Of a DNA stretch of 14,537 nucleotides, positions 1,531-14,093 are shown piece by piece. The notes beneath the pieces were generated by a model, which was given only the letters and a program-made list of their open reading frames with translations, was not told the DNA's origin and ran no database searches. The stretch is from positions 1 through 14,537 of the forward strand of contig NZJA01000006.1 in the NCBI GenBank assembly GCA_002691835.1, given 5' to 3'. The stretch's first letter is position 1. The number at the start of each line of letters is the position of its first letter. Origin of the DNA: Planctomycetota bacterium. Lineage in GTDB: Bacteria; Planctomycetota; UBA8108; UBA1146. The position numbers were made by a program, and so were the translations under genes.

Positions 1531-1657
1531 CTTTCGGGTCTTGCCTCCCGTCCCCGATCGGTCACAATGGACCTACCGTTTCCAAGCACGGAACTTCGGA
1601 GTGCAAAGGTCCGTCCCAAGACCTTCATGGAGACGCAATTCTCGGAAGGGAAATGAC

Positions 1658-2302
1658 ATGCCCAGTTTTTTCAGGACCCGCTCTGCGGGCCAAACCCGGA
1701 CTGATTCCTCAAAGTCGGGTTTCACCCTCATCGAATTGATGATTGTCGTGGCCATTATCGGGGTTCTCTCAACTCTGGTGACCAAGATGATTCAAATGGC
1801 TCAGGCCCGCAGCTTCGAAGCGAATGCGAAAAGTGACGTCTCTACGATCTCCAGTGCGCTGGAAGCATATATGAGGGACGAGGGGGTTTATCCCGCCTGG
1901 AAAGAAAAGCTGGGTGGGGAAGATCTGGAAACTTTTAACTGCTTCCCGATTCTCTTCGAAAATCTTCAGGGAGAACGTCCTCCTGAGGGTAGAGGTGGAA
2001 AAAACACTCCCTACAGCGACATGGCTTCCGATCGGATCGCCGTGATCGATGAGGACTTTGATGACGAGTTCAAGCGGGTAGGCAGAGATGATCTCTTCGA
2101 TCCGGAAGTGGACAAATATTATCTCGACCCCTGGAGTGAGCCCTATTTCTATCGCGAGAACAAGTCGAAGAGGACCAAGGAAGACTGGATGCTCAAACGT
2201 CGCGGTTTCGACCTTTGGTCTGTCGGCCCGGATGGCGTAAATGACGCTTGTTTCGGACATCCCGAGGAGGACGAGGAGTACGATGATATTGGCAACTGGT
2301 AG
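1658..2302 (+). CDS. gspG: GspG-like major pseudopilin (type II secretion system)
   Basis: A 214-residue prepilin-like protein. GspG subunits polymerise in the inner membrane into the pseudopilus that pushes substrates through the outer-membrane secretin. The leader (residues 1-21) ends KSG, followed by FTLIELMIVVAIIGVLSTLV. Cleavage after G21 would leave Phe at +1 and Glu at +5 (E26), both needed for processing and assembly. The C-terminus shows the GspG pattern: DPWSEPYFYR, then FDLWSVGPDGVND, then DDIGNW, i.e. the DPW-x-x-PY and D-x-x-S-x-G-x-DG calcium-loop region. It is longer than typical GspG (about 140-150), with an acidic middle insertion and an EEDEEYDD tail. The ATG at 1658 was chosen over an upstream in-frame ATG at 1541 because GGAAGGGAA (1644-1652) precedes it and the upstream extension is Arg/Trp-rich and not leader-like. 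First gene of a five-gene operon. Confidence 0.88.
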   Translation: MPSFFRTRSAGQTRTDSSKSGFTLIELMIVVAIIGVLSTLVTKMIQMAQARSFEANAKSDVSTISSALEAYMRDEGVYPAWKEKLGGEDLETFNCFPILFENLQGERPPEGRGGKNTPYSDMASDRIAVIDEDFDDEFKRVGRDDLFDPEVDKYYLDPWSEPYFYRENKSKRTKEDWMLKRRGFDLWSVGPDGVNDACFGHPEEDEEYDDIGNW

Positions 2303-2993
2303 TCAGCGCAGGTTGCGCTTACAGGTCGCCTCTCAGGCAGGATTCACGATGGTGGAACTGTTGGTGACAATATCACTGATTGTTTTCCTCATGTCGATGT
2401 TGGCTGTCGGAGCTGGAAGGTATCTCGAAAATACATCCGCAAAAGCCACGGAAGCCCTCATCGCTCGTATCGAGCTGAACTTGCAGCAATACAAGGGGAT
2501 CACCGGCGCATTCCCCCCGGACGGCCTCGACGGAAAAGACGTGACGACCGAAGAGGGGACTCCTTTGACTGGCGGAGCGGCTCTGACGTTGGCATTGACT
2601 GAGCCGATGAGGTTGACCCGCAAAATCAATGGAGAAGTCCGCGTCATTGGAGAGGAACCTCCGATGGGGGATTTCCGATCGGATGAACTCTACGTCACCG
2701 AAGAGGACTCTGCCGCCAAAGAAATCTTGGATGCATGGGCCAACCCTCTCCACTACGACAATGTCAATGGGGGTGAGGAAGCCTTCAGTCCGCAAAGTCT
2801 CGGCGAGACTCATCTCGATTTCGATGAAGATCTTTACATTCATATGGAGGATCCTCGTGAAATCGAGGAGCTCAGTGGAATCATCGGGCCACAGAATTCC
2901 AATGAATATGATATCTGGAGCCATGGCTCTTCAGGGCACGAAGATACTGAGCAGTACGAGGACTACATCACCAATTGGGAAACGAGGAACTAA
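2283..2993 (+). CDS. Second GspG-like pseudopilin
   Basis: A 236-residue pseudopilin. The leader ends SQAG (G20), followed by FTMVELLVTISLIVFLMSML, with Glu at +5 (E25). The C-terminal part again carries GspG-style signatures: ILDAWANPLHY, EYDIWSHGSSG and a final DYITNWE, parallel to DPWSEPYFY, FDLWSVGPDG and DDIGNW in the gene before it. The two are therefore probably divergent paralogues. An acidic insertion (around residues 160-200) separates the motifs. The ATG at 2283 is preferred: a purine-rich GAGGAGGACGAGGAG lies just upstream inside the preceding gene. An earlier ATG at 2241 in the same frame would overlap that gene by 62 bases and lengthen the leader to 34 residues. The chosen start overlaps by 20 bases, suggesting translational coupling. 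Whether it replaces or mixes with the first GspG cannot be seen here. Confidence 0.82.
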   Translation: MILATGSQRRLRLQVASQAGFTMVELLVTISLIVFLMSMLAVGAGRYLENTSAKATEALIARIELNLQQYKGITGAFPPDGLDGKDVTTEEGTPLTGGAALTLALTEPMRLTRKINGEVRVIGEEPPMGDFRSDELYVTEEDSAAKEILDAWANPLHYDNVNGGEEAFSPQSLGETHLDFDEDLYIHMEDPREIEELSGIIGPQNSNEYDIWSHGSSGHEDTEQYEDYITNWETRN

Positions 2994-3632
2994 ATGTTTT
3001 CCCGCTCTCTGTCGAGGACCGACTCAGGTCAACGGGGTTTTACACTGGTTGAGATGATTGTGACGATCGGAATCATCATCATGGCCGCTGGATTCATCGC
3101 ACCTGCGGTGACCAAGATTTTCCAGGATCGCCGCATCGAGAATGCTGCTTCCGTGGTGATCACCGCCATCAATGAGGCCCGGAATTCGACGGTGACGAAG
3201 AAGCAAAAGCATTCGGTGGTTTTCTTAAAAAGAGGTGTGCGGATTTATCGACATCCGAAGCGTGATGATGCCGGCGGGTTCGAGGGGGGTTTGCGTTCTG
3301 TCAATGCGACGGATGTTGAACTGATCTCCTATTCGATGCCTTGTGCACGCCTGGAGGCAGAAGATCTTCCGGATATGCTTGTCGCTCAAAGTGATGGTTT
3401 GAGTCAAGATGACTGGAAGCCAGCGACTGGCGATGTTTACCTTGATCTGAACTTGGACGGCACGATTGATTTCAGAGCTCTGACAGACATCCCGTCGTAC
3501 AAGTTTGATGCAGATCCTCCATATGGAGGGGATCTCATGATTTTCCAAAGAGGCGACATTCGAGTCTGCTATGTGGATATCAAGGCGACTGGTCGAGCCG
3601 GTAGCAAGGTGGCGGAACTGGAGTCCGACTGA
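2994..3632 (+). CDS. gspH: GspH/FimT-like minor pseudopilin
   Basis: A 212-residue pseudopilin whose ATG directly follows the TAA of the preceding gene. The leader of 15 residues ends SGQRG. The mature part starts FTLVEMIVTIGIIIMAAGF with Glu at +5 (E20). After the hydrophobic helix, the segment with R43-44, INEARNSTVTKKQKHSVVF follows the GspH/FimT pattern: an amphipathic helix containing A-x-x-x-A-R-x-x-x, then a beta strand. GspH belongs to the minor pseudopilins that form the tip complex or prime pseudopilus assembly. It is somewhat longer than the usual 150-170 residues. The C-terminus (DVYLDLNLDGTIDF, then DDPPYGGDLMIF-like text) includes a DLNLDGTID stretch resembling a calcium-binding loop. 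Assignment to H rather than another minor pseudopilin rests on the helix pattern and on gene order. Confidence 0.75.
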   Translation: MFSRSLSRTDSGQRGFTLVEMIVTIGIIIMAAGFIAPAVTKIFQDRRIENAASVVITAINEARNSTVTKKQKHSVVFLKRGVRIYRHPKRDDAGGFEGGLRSVNATDVELISYSMPCARLEAEDLPDMLVAQSDGLSQDDWKPATGDVYLDLNLDGTIDFRALTDIPSYKFDADPPYGGDLMIFQRGDIRVCYVDIKATGRAGSKVAELESD

Positions 3633-4513
3633 TGAATCTGAAACAGATGAATCAACAACCTTCCCTGAAAGGAATTTCAGGGTTCACAATTCTGGAGATC
3701 TTATTGGCCGTGGTCATTCTGACCGTGGGGTTGCTGGGGCTTCTGGCAGTGTTTCCCGTCGCCATGGATTCAGGTCGGAAAGCAGTGGAGGCGACCAATG
3801 CGGTCATCATCACTCAGTCGGTCGAGCAGGCCATCCGCGATGGATTGAAAGAGCACAAGGCACAAAGTCGTGATGGTCGCTGGACCTATTTCATCTTTCA
3901 CCATGATGGAGTGACCGATGATTATCCGACGGATATTGAAAAGGCTCGACCCGGAGCGGATCACTACATCCTGCTGCCATCGCCAGATCCAGATGCCACC
4001 ACCAGTATCGATCGTGATTCCCACTGGGATCGTGGCAAAACTTTTATCTTCCCAGAATCGGACGGTTTGACCTGGATCGTCGACGACGGACTTGGTGAAC
4101 GAGAAGTCGATAACGGTACTGAAGACGATTTCCGTGGCAGCCCCAATGGCAATGGAAATCCTTTGTTAGCGGATGACGATGCCGACGATCGAGAAGTTTC
4201 CGGCTTTGATGGAGAAAGTTACCGTGATTTCGACGTTCGAAGGGTCTACACCCTGAGCAACAATTTCTTCGATGAAGAGATCGCCGAAGATTTTGACATC
4301 GTCGATGAAGATCCCATTTCACAATATTCCTTCGCGTTTGCCATTCGGCCTGCAAGGCAGGACGCCAGTCTTGGGATTCAGTTTCCGGACAGCTCGAATT
4401 TGGTTCCCGCAGGAGAACTTTACGAAGTAGATATCATGGTTTTCCGTACCTTTAGAGAAGGTACAAGGAATGCCGATCCGATTTACAGGAGTCAAATTCT
4501 TGTCCATCGCTAG
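3632..4513 (+). CDS. GspI/PilV-like minor pseudopilin, enlarged and acidic
   Basis: A 293-residue protein whose ATG shares its A with the TGA of the preceding gene. The leader of 17 residues ends KGISG. The mature helix begins FTILEILLAVVILTVGLLGL with Glu at +5 (E22), the classic GspI/PilV form. Canonical GspI is only about 120-130 residues, so this is more than double. The extra mass includes a very acidic stretch at residues 151-228, with about 27 Asp/Glu against 6 Arg. The end (YSFAFAIRPAR, then GELYEVDIMVFRTF, RSQILVHR) looks like a folded beta domain. A start five codons downstream (ATG 3647) is possible. By position it should be the I subunit that pairs with J and normally K in the tip complex. 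The assignment comes from the N-terminal helix and operon order, as the C-terminal domain is not one I recognise. Confidence 0.75.
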   Translation: MNLKQMNQQPSLKGISGFTILEILLAVVILTVGLLGLLAVFPVAMDSGRKAVEATNAVIITQSVEQAIRDGLKEHKAQSRDGRWTYFIFHHDGVTDDYPTDIEKARPGADHYILLPSPDPDATTSIDRDSHWDRGKTFIFPESDGLTWIVDDGLGEREVDNGTEDDFRGSPNGNGNPLLADDDADDREVSGFDGESYRDFDVRRVYTLSNNFFDEEIAEDFDIVDEDPISQYSFAFAIRPARQDASLGIQFPDSSNLVPAGELYEVDIMVFRTFREGTRNADPIYRSQILVHR

Positions 4514-4535
4514 AGAAGTCGAAGAGGTTTCACCC

Positions 4536-5753
4536 ATGGCTGTTCAGGATGATCGTGCTGGAAATCCCTCTTCCGAAAAGGGATTCACACTTCTGGAGTT
4601 GCTCGTCGCCCTGACCCTTGCCGCCATCATCTCATTGATCATTTCCCAAGTAGGAAATGATGCACAACGGATGTATGACACCACAATCAGTACTGTTGAG
4701 ACTTATCAGAAGTTCCGTTACGCGATGGACGACATCAACGAGAATCTCTCGAAAATGGTGCCAACGGCTTCTTTGGAGTTCTACAACGATCGCGGCAGGA
4801 CTCGCGGATATTGGGACGAAGGAGAAGAGATTCCCAACTCTTCTGGTCCCAATATGGACGGCGGAACTGCCGACGAATACGACGAGGCTGCAACGGTATT
4901 CGAGCGGACCTACGTCCTGAGCGACCCTCGCCCAGGGGAACCTGAAGAACATTCGAATGATTCGATTTACTTCAAGGCTCCCGTTGAGATCAATGGTGTG
5001 ACCCGCATGGCCAACATTGAGTATTTTCTGGCTGATCCACGATTGCTGGAGGCAGGAGCAGGAAATGATGGAAAGATTCCAGCAGATGAAGAGCTGACTT
5101 ACCAGGACAGTCGGAGATTGGTTCTTTTGAAGGCCGTTCGATATCTCGATATTGACGAAAAGAATGTCCGGTCTTCGACAGTTATCGTACGAAAGGTCAT
5201 TTCTGAGCTGTGCTCAAATGTGACAGATTTCAAAGTCGAATATTTTTACGATAATCCATTCGACAAGTCGCCTGGGGGCTACATGAGCCCTTCTGTTGAG
5301 CAGACCAGAGAACTCGTTGATACAGAGTTTGAGATCCGCCAGGAGCGGGGAACCTTTGTGCGCCCCTTCCTATACGGTGGCTTCACCTCAAGGTTACGAA
5401 CCACTGCCAGGGCTGGAGTCCGCGAGCTTGAAACCGGTTCCTTCAAGCCAGTGCTCTTCAACTATGCTCGAAGCAAACTGAAGTTTTCTCAGCTGAAGCC
5501 CGGCGACAAGATGTACGTTTGGGCAGATGGAGCAACCCAGTTCCCCTCAGGTGAGTATTCCTTGCTCTACAACAGCCTTGGAAGGCTGATGTTCAATGAG
5601 CAGATCCAGTCGAGTACCTGGTCTCAAGATCCTGGGGGACTGAGGTTTCGCGCTGCCTATGTTCCGCCTTCATTCCGCGTCTCTGTCAGAGTGCTGAATG
5701 AGAAGGGCGAAGAGCCGAGAACCCTGACAACGGTGGTCAAGACCGACAACTGA
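4536..5753 (+). CDS. GspJ/PilW-like minor pseudopilin, enlarged
   Basis: A 405-residue pseudopilin, last of the operon. The leader of 16 residues ends SSEKG, followed by FTLLELLVALTLAAIISLII with Glu at +5 (E21). The following helix (QKFRYAMDDINENLSKMVPTA) resembles the GspJ/PilW pattern of a long amphipathic helix with basic and acidic residues. GspJ is usually about 200 residues; this one carries an additional region including an Asp/Glu-rich part (residues 80-150). It ends with a beta segment, PPSFRVSVRVLNEKGEEPRT, typical of J/PilW C-termini. The ATG at 4536 leaves a 22-base gap after the previous stop, with AGAGG at 4524-4528 upstream. An in-frame ATG at 4470 (ribosome site GAGAAGG at 4454-4460) would overlap the previous gene by 44 bases and add 22 residues to the leader. 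No gspK follows; the next gene is convergent. Confidence 0.75.
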   Translation: MAVQDDRAGNPSSEKGFTLLELLVALTLAAIISLIISQVGNDAQRMYDTTISTVETYQKFRYAMDDINENLSKMVPTASLEFYNDRGRTRGYWDEGEEIPNSSGPNMDGGTADEYDEAATVFERTYVLSDPRPGEPEEHSNDSIYFKAPVEINGVTRMANIEYFLADPRLLEAGAGNDGKIPADEELTYQDSRRLVLLKAVRYLDIDEKNVRSSTVIVRKVISELCSNVTDFKVEYFYDNPFDKSPGGYMSPSVEQTRELVDTEFEIRQERGTFVRPFLYGGFTSRLRTTARAGVRELETGSFKPVLFNYARSKLKFSQLKPGDKMYVWADGATQFPSGEYSLLYNSLGRLMFNEQIQSSTWSQDPGGLRFRAAYVPPSFRVSVRVLNEKGEEPRTLTTVVKTDN

Positions 5754-5785: not shown

Positions 5786-7264
5786 CTAGTCGGTTCTCTC
5801 AGTATTCAGGGCCAGCAGGAACTCAACATTGGATGGGGTCTGCTTCAGTTTTGCCTTGAGCATTTCCATGGCCTCCACAGGATTCATGTCGTTGAGGACC
5901 TTTCTCAGGATCCACAAACGCTTGATCTCCTCAGGGCTCATTAGGAGTTCCTCTTTTCGAGTACCAGATCGATTGATGTCGATCGCTGGCCAGACTCGTT
6001 TGTCGGCGAGGCGTCGATCCAGATGCAGCTCCATATTACCGGTGCCTTTAAACTCTTCAAAGATCACCTCATCCATCCGTGAGCCGGTATCGATCAAGGC
6101 TGTTGCCAGAATCGTCAGGCTACCCCCTTCTTCGATATTTCGGGCTGCTCCAAAGAACCGTTTGGGGCGTTGGAGAGCTCCGGCATCGACACCCCCTGAA
6201 AGGATTCTGCCGGAATGGGGGGCTTCGTTATTGTAAGCCCGGCCCAGTCGCGTAATCGAATCAAGAAGGATGACGACATCCCTGCCATATTCGACCAGGC
6301 GACGAGCCTTCTCGATGACCATTTCAGCAACCTGAACATGTCGAGATGCCGGTTCATCAAAGGTGGAGGAGATCACTTCACCACGGACATTTCTTTCCAT
6401 GTCAGTGACTTCCTCGGGACGTTCATCGATCAGAAGAACCATCAGGTCGACCTCTGGATGATTTGTCGCAATGGCGTTGGCAATATGTTGAAGAATGATG
6501 GTTTTACCGGTTCTGGGAGGCGCGACGATCAATCCCCGCTGACCTTTCCCGATCGGTGTGATCAAGTCGATGGTCCGTGTTTCGTTGATCGTCTGTTCCG
6601 TTTCCATCCTCAATCTCTCGTCGGGATAGAGTGGGGTCAGGTCATCGAATACGGCCTTTTGGTGTACCTTTTCGGGATTTTCGTAGTTGATGGCGTCGAC
6701 CTGCAACAGTGCGAAGTATCTCTCACCGTCTTTCGGAGGACGGACTTGTCCCTGGACCACCGTTCCAGTGGTCAGGCCGAATCGGCGAATCTGAGACGGA
6801 GAGACGTAAATGTCATCGGCGCACGGGTAGTAGGAGTAACGAGGGGAACGCAGGAATCCGAATCCATCGGGAAGGACTTCAAGAACACCTTCTCCGTACA
6901 TGACCCCGGAAGCCTTCGCCCGCTCTTTGAGAATCTCGAAGATCAGGTCCTGTTTCTTTAGACCTGCGATTTCCTCCAGGCCCTCTTCCCGAGCCATCGT
7001 CTGCAACTCCGCGATCGTCATTTTGTGCATTTCGGAGAGGTGCAGTTCCGGCACGTGACCGGAAACGGGCTTTGGTAGATCCTCGAGATCTTCGACGTCC
7101 TGAGGCAATCCCACGTATTCCTGAACCGGAGGTGCAGATTTTTTGGTGGTCTTGCGGGTCGTTTTTTTGGCTATTTTTTTACGGGTGGTCTTCTTGGCAG
7201 TTTTCTTGCGGGTCGTTTTTTTTGCACCGCGTGCTGGTTTGTCAGATCCCATTGAATCGCTCAT
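5786..7264 (-). CDS. rho: Transcription termination factor Rho with basic N-terminal extension
   Basis: A hexameric RNA-dependent ATPase/helicase that ends transcription by translocating on naked RNA. Residues 1-43 form a low-complexity basic tail of KKTTRKK-like repeats absent from E. coli Rho (419 aa). Residues about 82-116 are the Rho N-terminal helical domain. Residues about 120-195 are the cold-shock-like RNA-binding domain (DGFGFLRSP, then [14 protein letters not shown]). The ATPase core shows [15 protein letters not shown] (241-255, Walker A), [26 protein letters not shown] (Walker B, 329-345), and the secondary RNA-binding loops [20 protein letters not shown] and [17 protein letters not shown]. 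The total of 492 residues is long because of the tail. GAGGAG (7268-7273) precedes the ATG. It is the last gene of a polA-coaE-rho operon, 58 bases after coaE. Confidence 0.97.
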
Positions 7265-7322: not shown

Positions 7323-7991
7323 TCAGTCGATTTCTTTGATCCACTGTTGGATCAATTGTTCACAACGGGATTTCAATTCACCCGCAGTTGTCGAGTTACT
7401 GTTTGTGATCAGATCGGAAGATCCGGCTCTCTTGTCGGCGATGGGGAGTTGAGCTTTTTCCCGACGGGAACGCTCACCAGGGGCCCATCCCCGGTCATTG
7501 ATGACTCTTGATTCCCGATCTTCTTCGGGGGCTTCCACGAAGAGAATCCTGTCCACCTTATTCCTGTAGGGAGAAGTTTCGAGGAGGGGAATGTCGAGGA
7601 GGATCCAGATCCGGCCTTCCGGGAATGGACTGTTGCTATCGAACCCCATCCCTGCCAGTTTTTCAAGGGCATCGTCAATTCGTTGTCGAACAGCGGGATG
7701 AACCACTGATTCGAGGAATTTGAGGGCTTCTGGATCCGTGAAGACCACTTTTGAGAGGGATTCCCGATCGATCTCGCCAGATTCGGAGCGAATCTGATCC
7801 CCAAATTGATCGACCAATTGACGGATGACCGACTTTTCCGTCAAAACTGAGCGGGCCTCAGCATCGGCATCCAGTCGGCAGGCTCCGAGCTCTTCGAGGA
7901 GATTGGCAACCGTCGTTTTTCCTGAACCGATGCCTCCGGTCAATGCCACGACGAATGGTGGAGGACTTGAGGATCCATCACTTGGAGGCAT
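7323..7991 (-). CDS. coaE: Dephospho-CoA kinase (CoaE)
   Basis: This enzyme phosphorylates the ribose 3'-OH of dephospho-CoA with ATP, the last step of coenzyme A synthesis. The 222-residue product has the P-loop GGIGSGKTT at 19-27, then DADAEAR at 41-47, HPAVRQRI at 98-105, WILLDIPLLET at 129-139, and the lid/adenine region DRESRV...QLPIADKRAGSSDLITN at 158-197, all in the order expected for CoaE. The start at 7991 (MPPSDG) is chosen because GGAGAGGA at 8000-8007 stands eight bases upstream. A longer frame to 8036 lies fully inside polA and has no better site. The chosen start overlaps the polA 3' end by 14 bases, so translation is probably coupled. The first 12 residues are Ser/Pro-rich and precede the first beta strand. 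Confidence 0.94.
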   Translation of the reverse strand: MPPSDGSSSPPPFVVALTGGIGSGKTTVANLLEELGACRLDADAEARSVLTEKSVIRQLVDQFGDQIRSESGEIDRESLSKVVFTDPEALKFLESVVHPAVRQRIDDALEKLAGMGFDSNSPFPEGRIWILLDIPLLETSPYRNKVDRILFVEAPEEDRESRVINDRGWAPGERSRREKAQLPIADKRAGSSDLITNSNSTTAGELKSRCEQLIQQWIKEID

Positions 7992-10743
7992 CGAACCAGT
8001 CCTCTCCGGTATTGACTTCCACTTCCAGAGGGACACTCAGATCCATGACTCCGATCATGGCCTCCCGAAGCCAGCGCTGACAATCCTCAAACTGGTCACG
8101 GGGAACATCGAGCAATAGTTCGTCATGGATCTGCAGAAGCAGATGGCAGTCGCGACCGTCGAGTCGACATTGGCGATCGACTTCAATCATCGCCAGTTTG
8201 ATCATGTCTGCAGCAGATCCCTGAACCACGCTGTTGATCGCATATCTTTCTCCCTGAGCTTTTTCCCGAGCAACTCTTGAACGGATCTCGGGGAGTGGCC
8301 GGCGTCTTCCATGGAGGGTTCTGACCTCTCCGGTTTCAGCGGCTTTGCGTTTGGTTTCTTCCATCCAGTCTTGAACCGCCGGGAATCGGTGGAAGTAATC
8401 ATCGATAAATTGTTTTGCTTCCTTCACTGAGATCGCAAGATCCCTCGCCAGACCAAAGGCGCCCATTCCATACATCAGGACAAAGTTGACCGCCTTGGCT
8501 GCTGCACGTTCATCTTTGGTCACCTCAGAGTGATGCTTGTCGTGAATCTTTGCGGCCACTGAGGCATGGATGTCGACCCCGTCATGAATCGCCTGTAACA
8601 GCCCTTCGTCGGCGGTCAGGTGCGCCAAGAGGCGCAACTCTACTTGCGAATAGTCGGCGCTCACGAAGAGCCGGTCTGGACCGTTGGGAACAAAGCACTG
8701 ACGAATTTTTCGACCTTCTTCAGAGCGGATCGGAATGTTTTGCAGATTGGGTCGATTGGAGGCCAGGCGTCCTGTCGCTGTAATCGTCTGCCGGAAATCT
8801 GTGTGGATTCTGCCTGAGACCGGATGAACGTGCTGGGGCAGGGCTTGAATGTAGGTTGAGAGCAGCTTCGCCAGGCTCCGGTGACGCAGGATCGTCGTCG
8901 GCAACGGCTGTTCAGGATGCCGAAGAGATAACTCCTCAAGAGTCTCGGCTTTGACGCTGACCCCGGTTTTTGTTTTTGGGAGGCCCTCCGTAGGAAGTTT
9001 GAGGTCTTCAAAGAGAACTTTTTGAAGTTGCTTCGGGCTGGCAATGTTGAAAGGTTCTCCGGCAGCTTCATGGATTTCTGATTCCAGTTGCTGCATTTCA
9101 GAGACGAGTCGGGTTTCCTGCTCCTTGAGTCGCTCCTCATCGAGGGAGATTCCCTGACGTTCCATCGATGTGAGTACTTCGACAAGGGGGAGTTCGATTT
9201 CCCGGTAGACCGAATCGAGACCAAGCTGCTCGATATCTTTTTGCAGATGGTCATAAAGGCGAAGGGTGTAGTCCGCATCTTCCGCTGCGTATTCGGTGAT
9301 CTTTTCCGGTTCAATCTGATCCATGGAGATTTCTTCTTCACCGGAGCCGATCAGGGTCTTGATGGAAATCATGGTGTGCCCGAGTCGTTCACCAACGAGG
9401 TCATCCAACCCGTATCGACCACGAAGGGAATTGACAAGGTAGGCCGCAATCATCGGATCTCCGCTGATTCCACGGATGGTCACTCCCTCATTTCGCATCA
9501 CCTGTGCATCGAATTTCATGTTCTGACCGATTTTGCCGATGGCGGGATCCTCAAGGATCGGCTTGATCCGCTGGATCACATCTTCAAGTGGTATTGGACC
9601 TGCGCCATTGGGCGAGCGGAAAGGGATATACCAGGCTTCTCCATGGCGAACTGAAATACTGCAACCCACCGCAAAGCCGCCGATGCAATCAAGCGAGTTG
9701 GTTTCAGTATCAAATGCGAAGCGACCCTCATTTCGACAGGCTTCGACGACTTGATCCAACTGTTCAAGATCAGAGACATAGGAGTAGTCCACTTTTTCAG
9801 CGACAGCGGTCGAGGTTTGGGTCGGCTCTGTCGCTGCGGAGGGGGTTGTTTCGGCTGAACCGGAAAACAGATCCACCTCGACAGCCTCTTCGGGCTCAAG
9901 CATTTTCAGGAATCTGCGGAAACCCAGCTCCATGAAGAGTTGCCGCAATGCCGAATGATCGGGTTCAACCCGTTTCAGATCGTCCGGGAGCTCGGTCAGT
10001 GGGGCTTCCAGAGAAAGCGTGACCAGCTCCTTTGAGAGTTTGAAGATTTCAGGATCTTTGCGGACCTTCCTGATCGCGCTTTCTGGAATCGCATCGGGGA
10101 CTGGATCTTGTAGAAGGGATTCGGGGTCATCGACGACGTCGAGAATTTTAACCGCAGTCTTTGGCCCGACTCCTGCAACACCTGGAATGTTGTCAGAGCT
10201 GTCGCCGATCAGTGATTGATAAGCGATGACTTGATCAGGTCGGATCCCTTTTTTCTCGAGCAGTTCAGCTGGCCCATAGAGAGCCCACTTCTTCTCATCC
10301 AGGAATTGGACCTGAGGAGAGATCACCTGTTCCAAGTCCTTGTCCCGGGTGAGGAGTCGAACATCCATTTCAGCCTCTTGGGCGCGAACGGCCATCGTTG
10401 CCAGGCAGTCGTCCGCCTCATGCTGATCCGCCTGAAGGATGGGAACACGAAATGCTTCCAACATTCGATCGATGTAGGGAAGTTGGGATCGAAGCTCTTC
10501 GGGCATCGCATCCCGATTGGCCTTGTATTGGTCGTAACGGATATGACGAAAGGTTGGACCGTCGCATTCCATGGCGACAGCCCAATGGCTGACATCGTGA
10601 TCTCTGCAAAGTCGAAGCAGCAGATCGGTGACAGCGTAGATCGCCTGAACCTGCATCCCTTCGCTGTTGGTGAGGGGGCGCATTCCAAAATGTCCCCGAT
10701 AAATCTGATAGCGACCGTCGATCAGAAACAGTGTCTTGGACAA
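7978..10743 (-). CDS. polA: DNA polymerase I with 5' nuclease and intact proofreading domain
   Basis: This polymerase fills gaps and removes RNA primers in replication and excision repair. With a TTG start at 10743 it has 921 residues, close to E. coli (928). Domain 1, residues 5 to about 285, is the 5' nuclease: FLIDGRYQIYRG, EADD (109-112), DKD, and GDSSDNIPGVAGVGPKTA. A Ser/Thr/Ala-rich linker follows at about 290-320. Domain 2 is the 3'-5' exonuclease with all carboxylates: DTETNSLD (D345, E347), GQNMKFD (D412), YAAED (Y485, D489). Domain 3 is the polymerase: SADYSQVELRLLAH (D697), motif B with R746, K750, F754, Y758 and the following GMGAFGLA, and IHDELLLDVP (D874, E875). The conserved N-terminus SKTLFLIDG fits the TTG, with AAAGG upstream (10752-10756). 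A longer GTG-started frame reaches 10842 but adds a Pro/Ser-rich stretch. First gene of the operon. Confidence 0.96.
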   Translation of the reverse strand: MSKTLFLIDGRYQIYRGHFGMRPLTNSEGMQVQAIYAVTDLLLRLCRDHDVSHWAVAMECDGPTFRHIRYDQYKANRDAMPEELRSQLPYIDRMLEAFRVPILQADQHEADDCLATMAVRAQEAEMDVRLLTRDKDLEQVISPQVQFLDEKKWALYGPAELLEKKGIRPDQVIAYQSLIGDSSDNIPGVAGVGPKTAVKILDVVDDPESLLQDPVPDAIPESAIRKVRKDPEIFKLSKELVTLSLEAPLTELPDDLKRVEPDHSALRQLFMELGFRRFLKMLEPEEAVEVDLFSGSAETTPSAATEPTQTSTAVAEKVDYSYVSDLEQLDQVVEACRNEGRFAFDTETNSLDCIGGFAVGCSISVRHGEAWYIPFRSPNGAGPIPLEDVIQRIKPILEDPAIGKIGQNMKFDAQVMRNEGVTIRGISGDPMIAAYLVNSLRGRYGLDDLVGERLGHTMISIKTLIGSGEEEISMDQIEPEKITEYAAEDADYTLRLYDHLQKDIEQLGLDSVYREIELPLVEVLTSMERQGISLDEERLKEQETRLVSEMQQLESEIHEAAGEPFNIASPKQLQKVLFEDLKLPTEGLPKTKTGVSVKAETLEELSLRHPEQPLPTTILRHRSLAKLLSTYIQALPQHVHPVSGRIHTDFRQTITATGRLASNRPNLQNIPIRSEEGRKIRQCFVPNGPDRLFVSADYSQVELRLLAHLTADEGLLQAIHDGVDIHASVAAKIHDKHHSEVTKDERAAAKAVNFVLMYGMGAFGLARDLAISVKEAKQFIDDYFHRFPAVQDWMEETKRKAAETGEVRTLHGRRRPLPEIRSRVAREKAQGERYAINSVVQGSAADMIKLAMIEVDRQCRLDGRDCHLLLQIHDELLLDVPRDQFEDCQRWLREAMIGVMDLSVPLEVEVNTGEDWFDASK

Positions 10744-10779
10744 TTTGGAGACCTTTCGGGGGAGAAGCGAGACTGGAGG

Positions 10780-10812
10780 CCCCTCAGAAGGGGATTCCCG
10801 GGGAGGGGAATC
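10780..10812 (-). promoter_or_regulatory. Two overlapping hairpins in the putative polA leader
   Basis: Read on the plus strand, CCCCT (10780-10784) pairs with AGGGG (10789-10793) around CAGA. GATTCCC (10793-10799) pairs with GGGAATC (10806-10812) around six bases. Both stems are perfect and share base 10793, so on the minus-strand RNA they adjoin or compete. They lie about 37-70 bases upstream of the TTG start of polA. If polA instead starts at the GTG at 10842, they would be within the coding sequence. Confidence 0.4.
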
Positions 10813-10844
10813 AGGGGACCCTGTCGCCCCAAATCCACACACAG

Positions 10845-11229: not shown

Positions 11230-12441
11230 ATGGCCCGTAATCAGGGGGGAGCACAGCTCTCTTTTCTCATCGTCTCGTTGATTCTGAATCTGGGATTGGC
11301 TTTTGTCGTCTTCAGTATGAATGGCGAGTACCAGAGTCTGCTCAACCAGAATTCCAGTATCAACGCCAATGCCGAACGCATGGAAGATCAGATCAAGGAT
11401 AAGACTGCGGAGATCATGGCGATGAGAGGTTTGATTCAGGGCGCTGACGATCTTGCCGTTCCGACAGAGGAAGTGCGCAGCCTGATCGAAAAGGCGGGTT
11501 CTGAAATCGCCACTGCCAAAGGTTCATCGAACCCGCGCACCTATGGCTCATTGACCGATCTTTACTCGGACTCGACCGATACTATTCGATTCCTCAACAA
11601 TGAGCTCAACAGTCAGAGGTCTCTCGCCGAGGCCAAAGATCAGGAGTACATGGAGGTGGTTTCTTCGAAGAGCAATCTGGGAACTCAGCTCAACGAGGAG
11701 ATCGACAGCCTTCGTGGACAGGTCAATGATTTCCAGGTCGAACTGGAAGGCGCACGATCCAGAGGTCGGGAAGAAGCTCAACGCCTCCTCGAGGAGAATG
11801 AGCAGTTGGTTCAGGATCATAGTGCGGTGCTTTACAAGCTCCAGCGTGACTTGAGCATCACCGAGAACTTGCTTCAGAGATCGAATGACCGGATTGAAGA
11901 ACTCAAGCGCGAAATCGTTCGTGAAGAGACCTTTGCCATGGTCAAGCCGGACGGCGAAATCCTCAATGTTTCCGAAGAGCTCGGAAAAGCATGGATTAGC
12001 CTCGGTACCAAAAACAAGCTGCGTCGCGGTCTTGTCTTTGACGTGTTTGCTTTCCAAAAAGGTGGCAAGCGCATCAGCAAGGGACGAGTTGAGGTCCTCA
12101 AAGTCGAATCAGACTTCTCGGAAGTCGCCGTTCTCGAGAACCTTGACCGTTTCAATCCGATTTCAGCAGGCGATCAGATCACGAGCCCATTCTTTGATCA
12201 GGATGAGGTTCCTCACTTCGTCTTCGCTGGAGAAGCGGCGACCAATGGCAAGTACTCCGTTGAAGAGATGGTTCGCAAGATTGAGCTCTTCGGTGGGGTC
12301 GTTTCGACCAGCGTTGCTCTCGATACAGACTTTGTCGTTGCTGTGAAAGGCTACGAAGAGACCGATGAGTATGGATTGGCTCGTGACCTGGGTGTGACGA
12401 TCCTTCGTGAGCGTGAGCTTCTCGACTTCATCGATTTCTAG
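11230..12441 (+). CDS. Membrane-anchored coiled-coil protein with barrel-like and C-terminal BRCT-like domain
   Basis: A 403-residue protein I cannot name. Residues 10-30 form one transmembrane helix after a short Arg-containing N-terminus; acidic residues follow, which by the positive-inside rule favours an N-in, C-out signal anchor. Residues 31-70 and about 120-235 are charged, heptad-like and probably coiled coil. Residues about 236-320 look like a small beta-barrel (GKAWISLGTKNKLRRGLVFDVF, KGRVEVLKVESD, AGDQI), similar in pattern to FlgT C-terminal/SH3-like modules: a G-x-x-x-G-x-x-F/V motif and a closing GD-x-I. Residues 327-403 align by eye with the BRCT domain of NAD-dependent DNA ligase: HFVFAGE, a helix, FGGVVSTSVALDTDFVVA, LARDLGVTIL, ELLDFI. 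GAGGAG (11219-11224) supports the ATG. It stands alone between a divergent operon and a strong terminator. Confidence 0.85.
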   Translation: MARNQGGAQLSFLIVSLILNLGLAFVVFSMNGEYQSLLNQNSSINANAERMEDQIKDKTAEIMAMRGLIQGADDLAVPTEEVRSLIEKAGSEIATAKGSSNPRTYGSLTDLYSDSTDTIRFLNNELNSQRSLAEAKDQEYMEVVSSKSNLGTQLNEEIDSLRGQVNDFQVELEGARSRGREEAQRLLEENEQLVQDHSAVLYKLQRDLSITENLLQRSNDRIEELKREIVREETFAMVKPDGEILNVSEELGKAWISLGTKNKLRRGLVFDVFAFQKGGKRISKGRVEVLKVESDFSEVAVLENLDRFNPISAGDQITSPFFDQDEVPHFVFAGEAATNGKYSVEEMVRKIELFGGVVSTSVALDTDFVVAVKGYEETDEYGLARDLGVTILRERELLDFIDF

Positions 12442-12472
12442 GATTTGTCCCAACTGAATGGGAAATCTTCTG

Positions 12473-12510
12473 AAAAGGGGTGATTGCGATCCGCAATCAC
12501 CCCTTTTTTT
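12473..12510 (+). terminator. Strong intrinsic terminator after the BRCT-protein gene
   Basis: A perfect 16-bp stem (left arm 12473-12488, right arm 12492-12507) with a three-base ATC loop is followed by a T run, 12504-12510. The core is AAAAGGGGTGATTGCG and its exact complement. It lies 31 bases after the stop of the upstream gene and should isolate it from tatC. It is the only canonical Rho-independent terminator in the window. Confidence 0.93.
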
Positions 12511-12600: not shown

Positions 12601-12606
12601 TTTAAT
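12601..12606 (+). promoter_or_regulatory. Candidate -10 box for tatC-cinA
   Basis: TTTAAT matches 5 of 6 bases of TATAAT. The position 17 bases upstream has no good -35 hexamer but is covered by the second TCCTGAGGA palindrome, so an activator-dependent promoter is possible. The leader to the TTG start would be about 70 bases. Confidence 0.25.
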
Positions 12607-12669
12607 TGCTGATACTCGAATGCCATGGCAACATGGCACTGTTGGATCGAGTGTGGGAAATCGCATATC

Positions 12670-12676
12670 GGAGGAG
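12670..12676 (+). promoter_or_regulatory. Ribosome binding site fixing the TTG start of tatC
   Basis: GGAGGAG, a near-perfect Shine-Dalgarno sequence, ends seven bases before TTG at 12684. It is much stronger than anything ahead of the upstream in-frame TTG at 12606, so it fixes a TTG start. Confidence 0.75.
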
Positions 12677-12683
12677 TCGCCCG

Positions 12684-14093
12684 TTGTCTGTTCAAAAAGA
12701 TTCCAGTGAAGATTCTTTGGAGACGATGTCTTTTGGGGACCACCTCGAAGAGCTGCGAACCCGGTTGATCCGCTCCCTTCTGGTCGTCGTTGTTTTTGCG
12801 AGCGTGGCTCTGGTGTATCAGAGTGAGCTGATGACGATCGTGACGGCTCCACATCGCAAGGCGATGCTTCAGATTGAGTCGTCCCGAGTCGTGAAGGCTT
12901 TGTCTGCTGAAGTTTCGGAATTATCTGGTGAATCGAAGGGCCTCGATGTCCAAATCGCAGGCCAAAGCCTGAAGCAGGCGATCAGTCGAGGGGACTGGTG
13001 GCAACGCTGGGATCGATTCAGAGAAAGCGCGCCGGGGACTGGACCACTCTCTGAACTGATTGCTTTGGTGGAGGAACGGGTAGAGCTCCTCGATGGGACT
13101 CTCAAAACCGGTGACCCCTTGCTTCGGATTCCGCAAAGTATTGAGTACTGCATCTCCCTGTTGGCAAAAATCTCCCAATCGGACAAAGTCCCCTGGGGTG
13201 GGCAAGGCACGCTTGAAGAATTACAGAGCCAACTGAATCAGGTCCTTGAATATTGGCAAGCAGCGCAGCGGATCGCGAGTTCTGAGGTGGAAGTCGGCAA
13301 GGTCCCAGCGGGATCCGATGTTGCGGAATCCGATGTTGCGGGATCTGATGTCGCGGAGTCCGATTCCACACTTGTTCCAGAGGAACGCATACGGGTTACA
13401 AAGGAACAGCTGTCCCTGGCTGAGAATAAACTTCGAGAAATGGCGGATCGTACAGAGACGATTGAGACGCGTTTGGTCGACTGGTCTAACTGGTATGAAG
13501 AGGGGCGGCCACTCGTTCTTCTGGCCTATACCGAAGCCTTCTTCGCATACATTAAGTTGGGTTTGTTTCTCGGATTAATCTGTGCACTGCCATGGATCTC
13601 CGCTGAAGTCTGGCAGTTTATTGCTGCTGGACTATATCCGGGGGAACGAAAGTCGGTCCGACCATTTTTACCGGTCGCGTTTTTGCTCCTCGCGGCGGGA
13701 GTCAACTTCGCTTATTGGATTCTCGTGCCGGTAGGCCTTTCATTTTTGGGGGGCTACGGAGATCCCTCGCTTTTGGCTACCAGCTTCACTCTGAAAGACT
13801 ACATGGGTCTTGTGTTCACTCTGGTTCTTGGAATGGGTTTGATTTTCCAGTTACCTTTGCTGATGGTTCTCTTGACTCGAAGCGGGATTGTCGCCGTTTC
13901 ATTTTTCAGGGAGTACCGAAAGGTCGCGATCATGACAGCGGTCGTTTTCGGAGCTTTTCTGACCCCTCCGGATGTGGTGACTCAAATGTTGATGGCCGGT
14001 CCGCTTGTCTTGCTCTATGAACTGGGCATCTTCGCCAGTCTCGTTTTGGGGAAACCTGCCCAAGCAAAGAATGAGCTCGATGAACCATCCTGA
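12684..14093 (+). CDS. tatC: Sec-independent protein translocase TatC with a large insertion between TM1 and TM2
   Basis: TatC is the inner-membrane receptor for twin-arginine signal peptides and forms the translocase with TatA/TatB. The 469-residue product begins with the cytoplasmic motif FGDHLEELRTRL (residues 17-28). TM1 covers about 29-46. TM2 (about 285-305, FFAYIKLGLFLGLICALPW) is followed by the conserved cytoplasmic GLYPGERK (E321, equivalent to E. coli E103). Then come TM3 (328-354), TM4 (374-398), TM5 with TPPD at 427-430, and TM6 (433-455). E. coli TatC has about 258 residues; the excess sits in the first external loop, residues about 62-274, which is charged and helix-prone and includes a short tandem repeat. 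Both conserved edges of that loop (TAPHRKAM and LAYTEAFFAYIKL) remain, so this is an insertion, not a misassembled fusion. No tatA/B gene is nearby. The 3' end overlaps cinA by 14 bases. Confidence 0.93.
   Translation: MSVQKDSSEDSLETMSFGDHLEELRTRLIRSLLVVVVFASVALVYQSELMTIVTAPHRKAMLQIESSRVVKALSAEVSELSGESKGLDVQIAGQSLKQAISRGDWWQRWDRFRESAPGTGPLSELIALVEERVELLDGTLKTGDPLLRIPQSIEYCISLLAKISQSDKVPWGGQGTLEELQSQLNQVLEYWQAAQRIASSEVEVGKVPAGSDVAESDVAGSDVAESDSTLVPEERIRVTKEQLSLAENKLREMADRTETIETRLVDWSNWYEEGRPLVLLAYTEAFFAYIKLGLFLGLICALPWISAEVWQFIAAGLYPGERKSVRPFLPVAFLLLAAGVNFAYWILVPVGLSFLGGYGDPSLLATSFTLKDYMGLVFTLVLGMGLIFQLPLLMVLLTRSGIVAVSFFREYRKVAIMTAVVFGAFLTPPDVVTQMLMAGPLVLLYELGIFASLVLGKPAQAKNELDEPS
13311..13367 (+). 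repeat. 15-bp tandem repeat inside tatC, about 3.8 units
   Basis: Units at 13311-13325, 13326-13340, 13341-13355 and a partial one at 13356-13367 follow the pattern G(G/A)(A/G)TC(C/T)GATGT(T/C)GCG. They encode the peptide repeat (G/E)SDVA. The first two copies differ at one base. The repeat lies in the TatC external-loop insertion and stays in frame, so copy-number change would lengthen or shorten the loop by five residues without breaking the gene. Confidence 0.85.

What the first reader, a model, noticed from the sequence alone, without database searches (positions are those of the whole stretch)
11230..12441. Membrane-tethered coiled-coil protein ending in a BRCT-like domain
The C-terminal 77 residues line up by eye with the BRCT domain of NAD-dependent DNA ligase: FVFAGE, the FGGVVSTSV turn, TDFVVA and LGVTIL elements, and a final ELLDFI helix. 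BRCT modules normally bind DNA ends or phosphopeptides in the cytoplasm. Here one is joined to an N-terminal membrane helix, a long coiled coil and a barrel-like module. The charge pattern around the helix suggests the bulk lies outside the cytoplasm, which would be odd for a BRCT fold. If the topology is instead C-in, it could tether DNA or repair complexes to the membrane; the gene is divergent from polA. I know no named family with this order of parts.
Basis: partly seen in the sequence, partly recalled or inferred. Interest (0 to 1): 0.72.

Follow-up and report, generated by a model that had tools for sequence, protein, structure and literature searches.

The report
Exported BRCT protein of Planctomycetota
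A protein found in most sampled bacteria of one phylum carries a domain normally used inside cells to handle broken DNA, but here it probably sits outside the cytoplasm on a membrane-anchored rod, with its DNA-handling pocket lost and, in some relatives, a calcium-type loop in its place.

Summary
ORF 11230-12441 (403 aa) has a short N-tail, one membrane helix, a long coiled coil, a beta barrel and a true BRCT domain (Pfam 31.6 bits, cut-off 21.3; model within 1.4 A of LigA BRCT over 72 residues). The barrel resembles the C-terminal domain of FlgT. The same architecture runs through Planctomycetota: 255 of 294 genomes have a barrel/BRCT-profile match below E 1e-12, a level that LigA did not reach in the genomes checked. 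Gene order is old: rho and coaE diverge from the gene and tatC often follows; polA is a neighbour in only 7 of 41 broad relatives. Charge bias favours, without proving, an exported C-terminal bulk. The residues matching LigA's phosphate pocket (Thr, Arg, Lys in 8 of 8 planctomycete LigA) are Ala, Val, Glu here; the Lys is absent in all 57 aligned rows. In a large subgroup, not in the window protein, that loop carries an EF-hand-like DxDxDG motif (motif in 109 of 120 listed proteins, 103 placed in the loop). Best reading: an envelope scaffold with an exported, repurposed BRCT head, not a DNA tether. Partner and role are not shown.

The parts
11230..12441 (+). gene for the 403-residue membrane-anchored coiled-coil / barrel / BRCT protein
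   Evidence: ORF; homologues
11257..11319 (+). single N-terminal membrane helix, about residues 10-30, after a 9-residue tail
   Evidence: hydropathy and flanking charges of near relatives with the same N-terminus; helix 6-70 in the model
11551..11934 (+). long coiled-coil helix, residues 108-235 (further helix 6-70 and 79-97 before it)
   Evidence: AlphaFold2 model
11950..12192 (+). beta barrel like the FlgT C-terminal domain, about residues 241-321
12208..12438 (+). BRCT domain, residues 327-403
   Evidence: Pfam; models; folds; profile-profile match of 24 remote relatives to planctomycete LigA BRCT, 98.7% probability
12472..12508 (+). 17-pair hairpin ending in a T run, intrinsic-terminator-like, between this gene and tatC
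   Evidence: z -5.39; equivalent hairpin in L001-L006; the consensus scan did not list it
7978..10842 (-). polA, divergent neighbour
   Evidence: Pfam DNA_pol_A; shared with 14 of 15 near loci
7323..8036 (-). coaE, next to polA
   Evidence: Pfam CoaE; synteny
5786..7264 (-). rho
   Evidence: Pfam Rho domains; synteny
12606..14093 (+). tatC, downstream on the same strand (true start probably near 12726, by eye)
   Evidence: Pfam TatC; synteny

Best explanation
The gene encodes the local member of a Planctomycetota family of single-pass inner-membrane proteins. The short N-tail stays in the cytoplasm. The membrane helix acts as an uncleaved signal-anchor. The coiled-coil rod, a FlgT_C-like barrel and a C-terminal BRCT domain lie in the periplasm. 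The BRCT domain is of the LigA/RFC1 type but has lost its phosphate-binding residues, so it most likely acts as a protein-protein head of an envelope scaffold, probably held by calcium in one subgroup. Shown by computation: the fold, the family, the gene order, the lost pocket, the DxDxDG motif. Inferred: the topology, that the loop binds calcium, and the scaffold role.
For: Fold. Family: the full-length profile matches 56 of 56 best ORFs in 55 loci, in each from profile position 24 or before to 399 or beyond; the barrel+BRCT profile has a best E below 1e-12 in 255 of 294 genomes (hand count). Of the 12 lowest-scoring such genomes re-searched, 11 have barrel and BRCT in one frame and one (G203) a barrel-only match in a 349-aa frame; the two genomes just above 1e-12 gave LigA-like frames only. 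Gene order shared with remote relatives supports orthology. Topology: a membrane helix in 56 of 56; N-flank net charge above C-flank in 46, equal in 9, below in 1; second set of 55 non-duplicate loci: 49 usable, 35 above, 10 equal, 4 below. Cys after the helix 20 of 22,369 residues; 11 of 53,626 after residue 60 in 120 Gimesia-type proteins; 38 of 4,758 in seven LigA. Pocket: Thr, Arg, Lys in 8 of 8 LigA; at those columns of the 57-row family alignment Thr 2 and Ser 5, Arg 10, Lys 0. DxDxDG-type motif in the beta1-alpha1 loop of 24 of 112 aligned proteins, 3 occurrences elsewhere; motif in 109 of 120 listed Gimesia-type proteins. BRCT net charge: family median -6, range -12 to 0.
Against: No topology experiment. 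9 of 56 and 10 of 49 have no charge difference, and 1 and 4 point the other way. Scarce Cys is weak evidence: LigA's own cytosolic BRCT has 1 Cys in 719 residues, and Rho, also cytosolic, is lower (0.44%) than PolA or CoaE. The FlgT_C model is not listed for the window protein at E up to 10. Seven of 57 rows keep Ser or Thr and 10 keep Arg in the pocket, and the alpha2 column is less surely aligned in members with long insertions there. Gene order may be merely old: among 32 cases with a motif-based tatC start the gap is 100-400 nt in 28, and here it holds a strong hairpin. No out-of-phylum control could be run.
Confidence: 0.6

Rival explanations
1. C-in tether: the BRCT domain faces the cytoplasm and holds DNA ends or repair proteins (PolA, LigA) at the membrane.
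For: LigA/RFC1-type BRCT; polA is divergent in the window and 14 of 15 near loci; a minority have no or reversed charge bias.
Against: Positive charge lies mostly on the N side; the phosphate pocket is lost and the domain is acidic; polA is a neighbour in only 7 of 41 broad relatives; a DxDxDG loop, a motif I recall as common in exported proteins, in a large subgroup.
Confidence: 0.12
2. Periplasmic DNA-uptake factor: an exported BRCT that binds incoming DNA, near the pseudopilin genes seen in the window.
For: Pilin-like genes lie beyond rho in the window and in several relatives; bacterial BRCT pockets are tied to phosphates at DNA nicks or ends (PMC10504179, passages).
Against: Pocket residues lost, net negative domain; relatives of these pilin-like genes were not detected near many relatives that keep the gene.
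Confidence: 0.08
3. Tat partner: a periplasmic accessory of the TatC translocase, whose gene lies downstream.
For: tatC downstream on the same strand in 14 of 15 near and 24 (or 25) of 41 broad cases; many planctomycete TatC here are 412-475 aa from a motif-based start, longer than E. coli TatC as I recall it.
Against: A terminator-like hairpin separates the genes in the window and six near loci (not found by the script in the other 33 of 39 loci); five loci keep polA, coaE and rho, two of them Gimesia aquarii by match, with no tatC detected nearby (L072, L074, L075, L077, L078); coaE is as constant a neighbour as tatC.
Confidence: 0.2

Closest known systems
BRCT domain of NAD-dependent DNA ligase LigA (PF00533)
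   Same: Same fold, rmsd 1.4 A over 72 residues; nearest by sequence profile; shared Gly after helix 1 and Thr of the T-D-[FY] strand.
   Different: No ligase parts; phosphate-pocket Thr/Arg/Lys replaced; acidic; fused to a membrane anchor; 8 of 9 near genomes also have a separate LigA-like BRCT protein.
RFC1 BRCT (2k6g, 2ebu, 7u1a)
   Same: Same BRCT subclass by sequence and fold.
   Different: Eukaryotic clamp-loader part that binds DNA; nothing else shared.
FlgT C-terminal domain (PF16538; 3w1e, 8z5n)
MreC / FtsL-type bitopic envelope scaffolds (recalled)
   Same: Short N-tail, one helix, coiled coil, beta domain outside (recalled).
   Different: No sequence membership: FtsL model NF049847 scores 19.1 against a cut-off of 50; I recall no BRCT in those families.

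Membership tests
BRCT domain superfamily (PF00533) | Profile score over the curated cut-off | tested here: met
   31.6 bits against 21.3; 33 of 36 C-terminal halves match at E up to 1
BRCT domain superfamily (PF00533) | Four-stranded sheet with flanking helices | tested here: met
Phosphate-binding BRCT (LigA / BRCA1 type) | Ser/Thr-Gly after strand 1 and Lys at the start of helix 2 (pocket as described in PMC10386641, passage) | tested here: not met
   Window has Ala-Gly and Glu; Lys in 0 of 57 and Ser/Thr in 7 of 57 family rows, against Thr and Lys in 8 of 8 LigA
NAD-dependent DNA ligase LigA | Full ligase model | tested here: not met
   TIGR00575 23 bits against 444.45, BRCT part only
FlgT_C (PF16538) | Profile match | tested here: not met
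   Not listed for the window at E up to 10; weak in 12 of 36 C-terminal halves
FlgT_C (PF16538) | Barrel fold | tested here: inconclusive
FtsL (NF049847) | NCBIfam model score | tested here: not met
   19.1 against 50
Signal-anchored exported protein | C-terminal bulk outside the cytoplasm | tested here: inconclusive
   Charge bias in 46 of 56 and 35 of 49; no experiment

The most novel reading that the evidence does not exclude
Most of a phylum has moved a DNA-ligase-type BRCT domain out of the cytoplasm, erased its phosphate pocket and, in one large subgroup, rebuilt the same loop as a calcium site, turning a DNA-nick reader into a core part of the planctomycete envelope.
Probability: 0.45. 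Interest if true: 0.78.

Novelty: new variant of a known kind. Interest (0 to 1): 0.62.

Why it matters
[quoted passage not shown] A near phylum-wide exported version would be a clear case of a repair module repurposed for the envelope. It also offers a conserved, testable gene in a phylum whose envelope and division are poorly understood; PMC10632474 (passages) counts 108 essential Planctomycetes-specific proteins of unknown function in Planctopirus limnophila.

Tried and rejected
Chance or mis-read ORF: rejected by homologues and fold. LigA fragment or pseudogene: rejected, 8 of 9 near genomes hold a separate BRCT protein in a frame of 510-821 aa (the ninth, G009, showed only this protein). 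Membership in FtsL, FlgT or LigA: scores below cut-off or not listed.

Prevalence. First figures of 291 of 294 (full-length profile) and 289 of 294 (E 1e-5) were set aside because weak matches can be LigA. In one search, 34 genomes have a best E between 1e-12 and 1e-5 and 5 have none. Of these 39, 12 were re-searched: in 10 the best match was the BRCT part alone in a frame of 675-889 aa; the others were a 54-aa frame (G145) and barrel-only matches (G045). Two more (G186, G210) also gave BRCT-only matches in frames of 678 and 700 aa. The other 25 were not re-searched. The remaining 255 have best E below 1e-12; the listing is capped, so not each of the 255 was seen to span both domains.

Spread outside the phylum. 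Where an organism name was shown, searches gave only Planctomycetes (and Gimesia species); one search also gave DNA ligases without organism. These searches reach only relatives sharing exact words, most rows carry no organism, and one search listed 120 of 305.

Other. A promoter/terminator scan gave counts within the range of shuffles and did not list the downstream hairpin. A quick FastTree of 111 rows needs 6 changes for the DxDxDG label against 22.1 for shuffles, but 37 of 107 inner branches are open. Literature searches whose listed rows showed no exported or planctomycete BRCT: (open-licence papers only; some searches listed only part of their hits; titles and abstract starts seen). Passages by term, not whole texts, were seen of PMC8567305, PMC10632474, PMC10386641 and PMC10504179. 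Two newer Pfam accessions stand in precomputed labels of a few relatives: PF27442 (P0055), which is not in the held copy, and PF28533, which I did not look up; I cannot say whether they already cover part of this family.

Full report

How widespread. In the first search 48 of 57 proteins align over 95% or more of the query, two are shorter (P0039, P0050) and seven are remote. Pfam labels miss the BRCT in most remote members, but an alignment of 24 remote C-termini matches planctomycete LigA BRCT at 98.7% probability, and 33 of 36 C-terminal halves give a BRCT match at E up to 1. Gimesia proteins are named 'hypothetical protein' without any Pfam label. In 294 Planctomycetota genomes the barrel+BRCT profile gives a best E below 1e-12 in 255, a weaker match in 34 and none in 5 (counted by hand). 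The cut separates well where I looked: of 12 of the lowest-scoring genomes under it, 11 have both domains in one frame and one a barrel-only match in a 349-aa frame, while the two genomes just over it have only LigA-like frames; 10 of 12 other weak genomes were also LigA-like. Some genomes carry two copies side by side: in at least 14 of the 60 genomes two separate frames match on one contig within about 3 kb (G147 is a possible fifteenth).

Gene order. Pfam confirms the neighbours rho, coaE, polA and tatC in the window. In 15 near loci coaE lies upstream on the other strand in 15, polA in 14, rho in 13, and tatC downstream on the same strand in 14; some contigs end early. In 40 loci chosen from the better-scoring matches across the phylum (41 proteins) the numbers are coaE 29, rho 27, tatC 24 and polA 7; one more tatC, in L090, was mis-sided by the script, while the tblastn puts it downstream. 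So the order is old, and polA is not its constant part. In the window a strong hairpin followed by T's separates the gene from tatC, and likewise in L001-L006, while the script found none in the other 33 of 39 loci. Conserved order alone does not show that the gene works with tatC.

Topology. All 56 proteins of the first set have one helix near the N-terminus with Lys or Arg in the tail. The N-flank is more positive than the 15 residues after the helix in 46, equal in 9, less in 1. A second set, drawn from weaker-scoring genomes, gives 35, 10 and 4 of 49 usable out of 55 non-duplicate loci. Cys is almost absent after the helix: 20 of 22,369 residues, and 11 of 53,626 in 120 Gimesia-type proteins. 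Seven LigA have 38 of 4,758, but the LigA BRCT part alone has 1 of 719, so this argument is weak for the BRCT part. I take C-out as likely, not shown.

The pocket. PMC10386641 (passage) describes the BRCT phosphate pocket as Ser/Thr-Gly after strand 1 plus a Lys at the start of helix 2; PMC10504179 (passage) ties the pocket in prokaryotes to phosphates at DNA nicks or ends. That an Arg of helix 1 also belongs to it is recalled from RFC1. Planctomycete LigA has Thr, Arg and Lys at these places in 8 of 8. The window has Ala, Val and Glu. In the 57-row family alignment the Lys is absent in 57 of 57, Thr or Ser is present in 7, Arg in 10. The window BRCT has net charge -8, the family median is -6 (range -12 to 0), LigA lies between -2 and +2. 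DNA-end or phosphopeptide binding is therefore unlikely.

A loop that looks like a calcium site. In 24 of 112 aligned proteins the beta1-alpha1 loop, which carries half of the pocket in LigA, holds a DxDxDG-type motif; only 3 occurrences lie elsewhere in these proteins. In a search with a Gimesia protein, 109 of the 120 listed relatives (of 305 found) have the motif. A narrower pattern places 103 of them in that loop; in the other six it first lies at residues 303-342. The 11 without the exact motif show near variants at that place. The window protein itself does not have it. That it binds calcium is inference from the motif (recalled from EF-hands and dockerins).

Mechanism, with steps marked. 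Inferred: the helix anchors the protein in the inner membrane, the rod reaches into the periplasm, barrel and BRCT form the head. Shown by computation: the head's folds and the loss of the pocket. Inferred: the head binds a protein partner in the envelope, and in the Gimesia-type subgroup a calcium ion orders its loop. Not known: the partner.

Verdict. It is a new architecture built from known domains, spread through most sampled genomes of a phylum and, as far as my searches reach, without a name. Interest is well above ordinary because of the compartment and the loop, and limited by the absence of any functional evidence.

Noticed in passing
window 12606-14093: TatC is long here: Pfam matches it in two stretches, the larger at residues 299-466, with about 200 extra residues after the first membrane helix by eye. 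In relatives with a motif-based start TatC is 412-475 aa in some and 248-318 aa in others.
   Followed up: partly
L085 9369-12119; contigs of G030, G092, G110, G126, G197 and others: Two copies of the family side by side in some genomes (at least 14 of 60).
   Followed up: partly
L072, L074, L075, L077, L117-L119, L148 and others: EF-hand-like DxDxDG loop at the BRCT beta1-alpha1 turn, clustered in one part of the family.
   Followed up: yes
window 1541-5753: Run of five genes next to rho: four have the pilin-type N-terminal methylation motif, two also match T2SS protein G, one (3632-4513) has no Pfam match. Kept in near relatives and some remote ones.
   Followed up: partly
L007, L014: Metagenome bins titled Bacillota and Proteobacteria that carry this planctomycete locus; titles are probably wrong.
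   Followed up: partly
C-termini of L071-L077, L084, L092: Low-complexity tails rich in Ser, Thr, Gly and Arg after the BRCT domain in these members.
   Followed up: no
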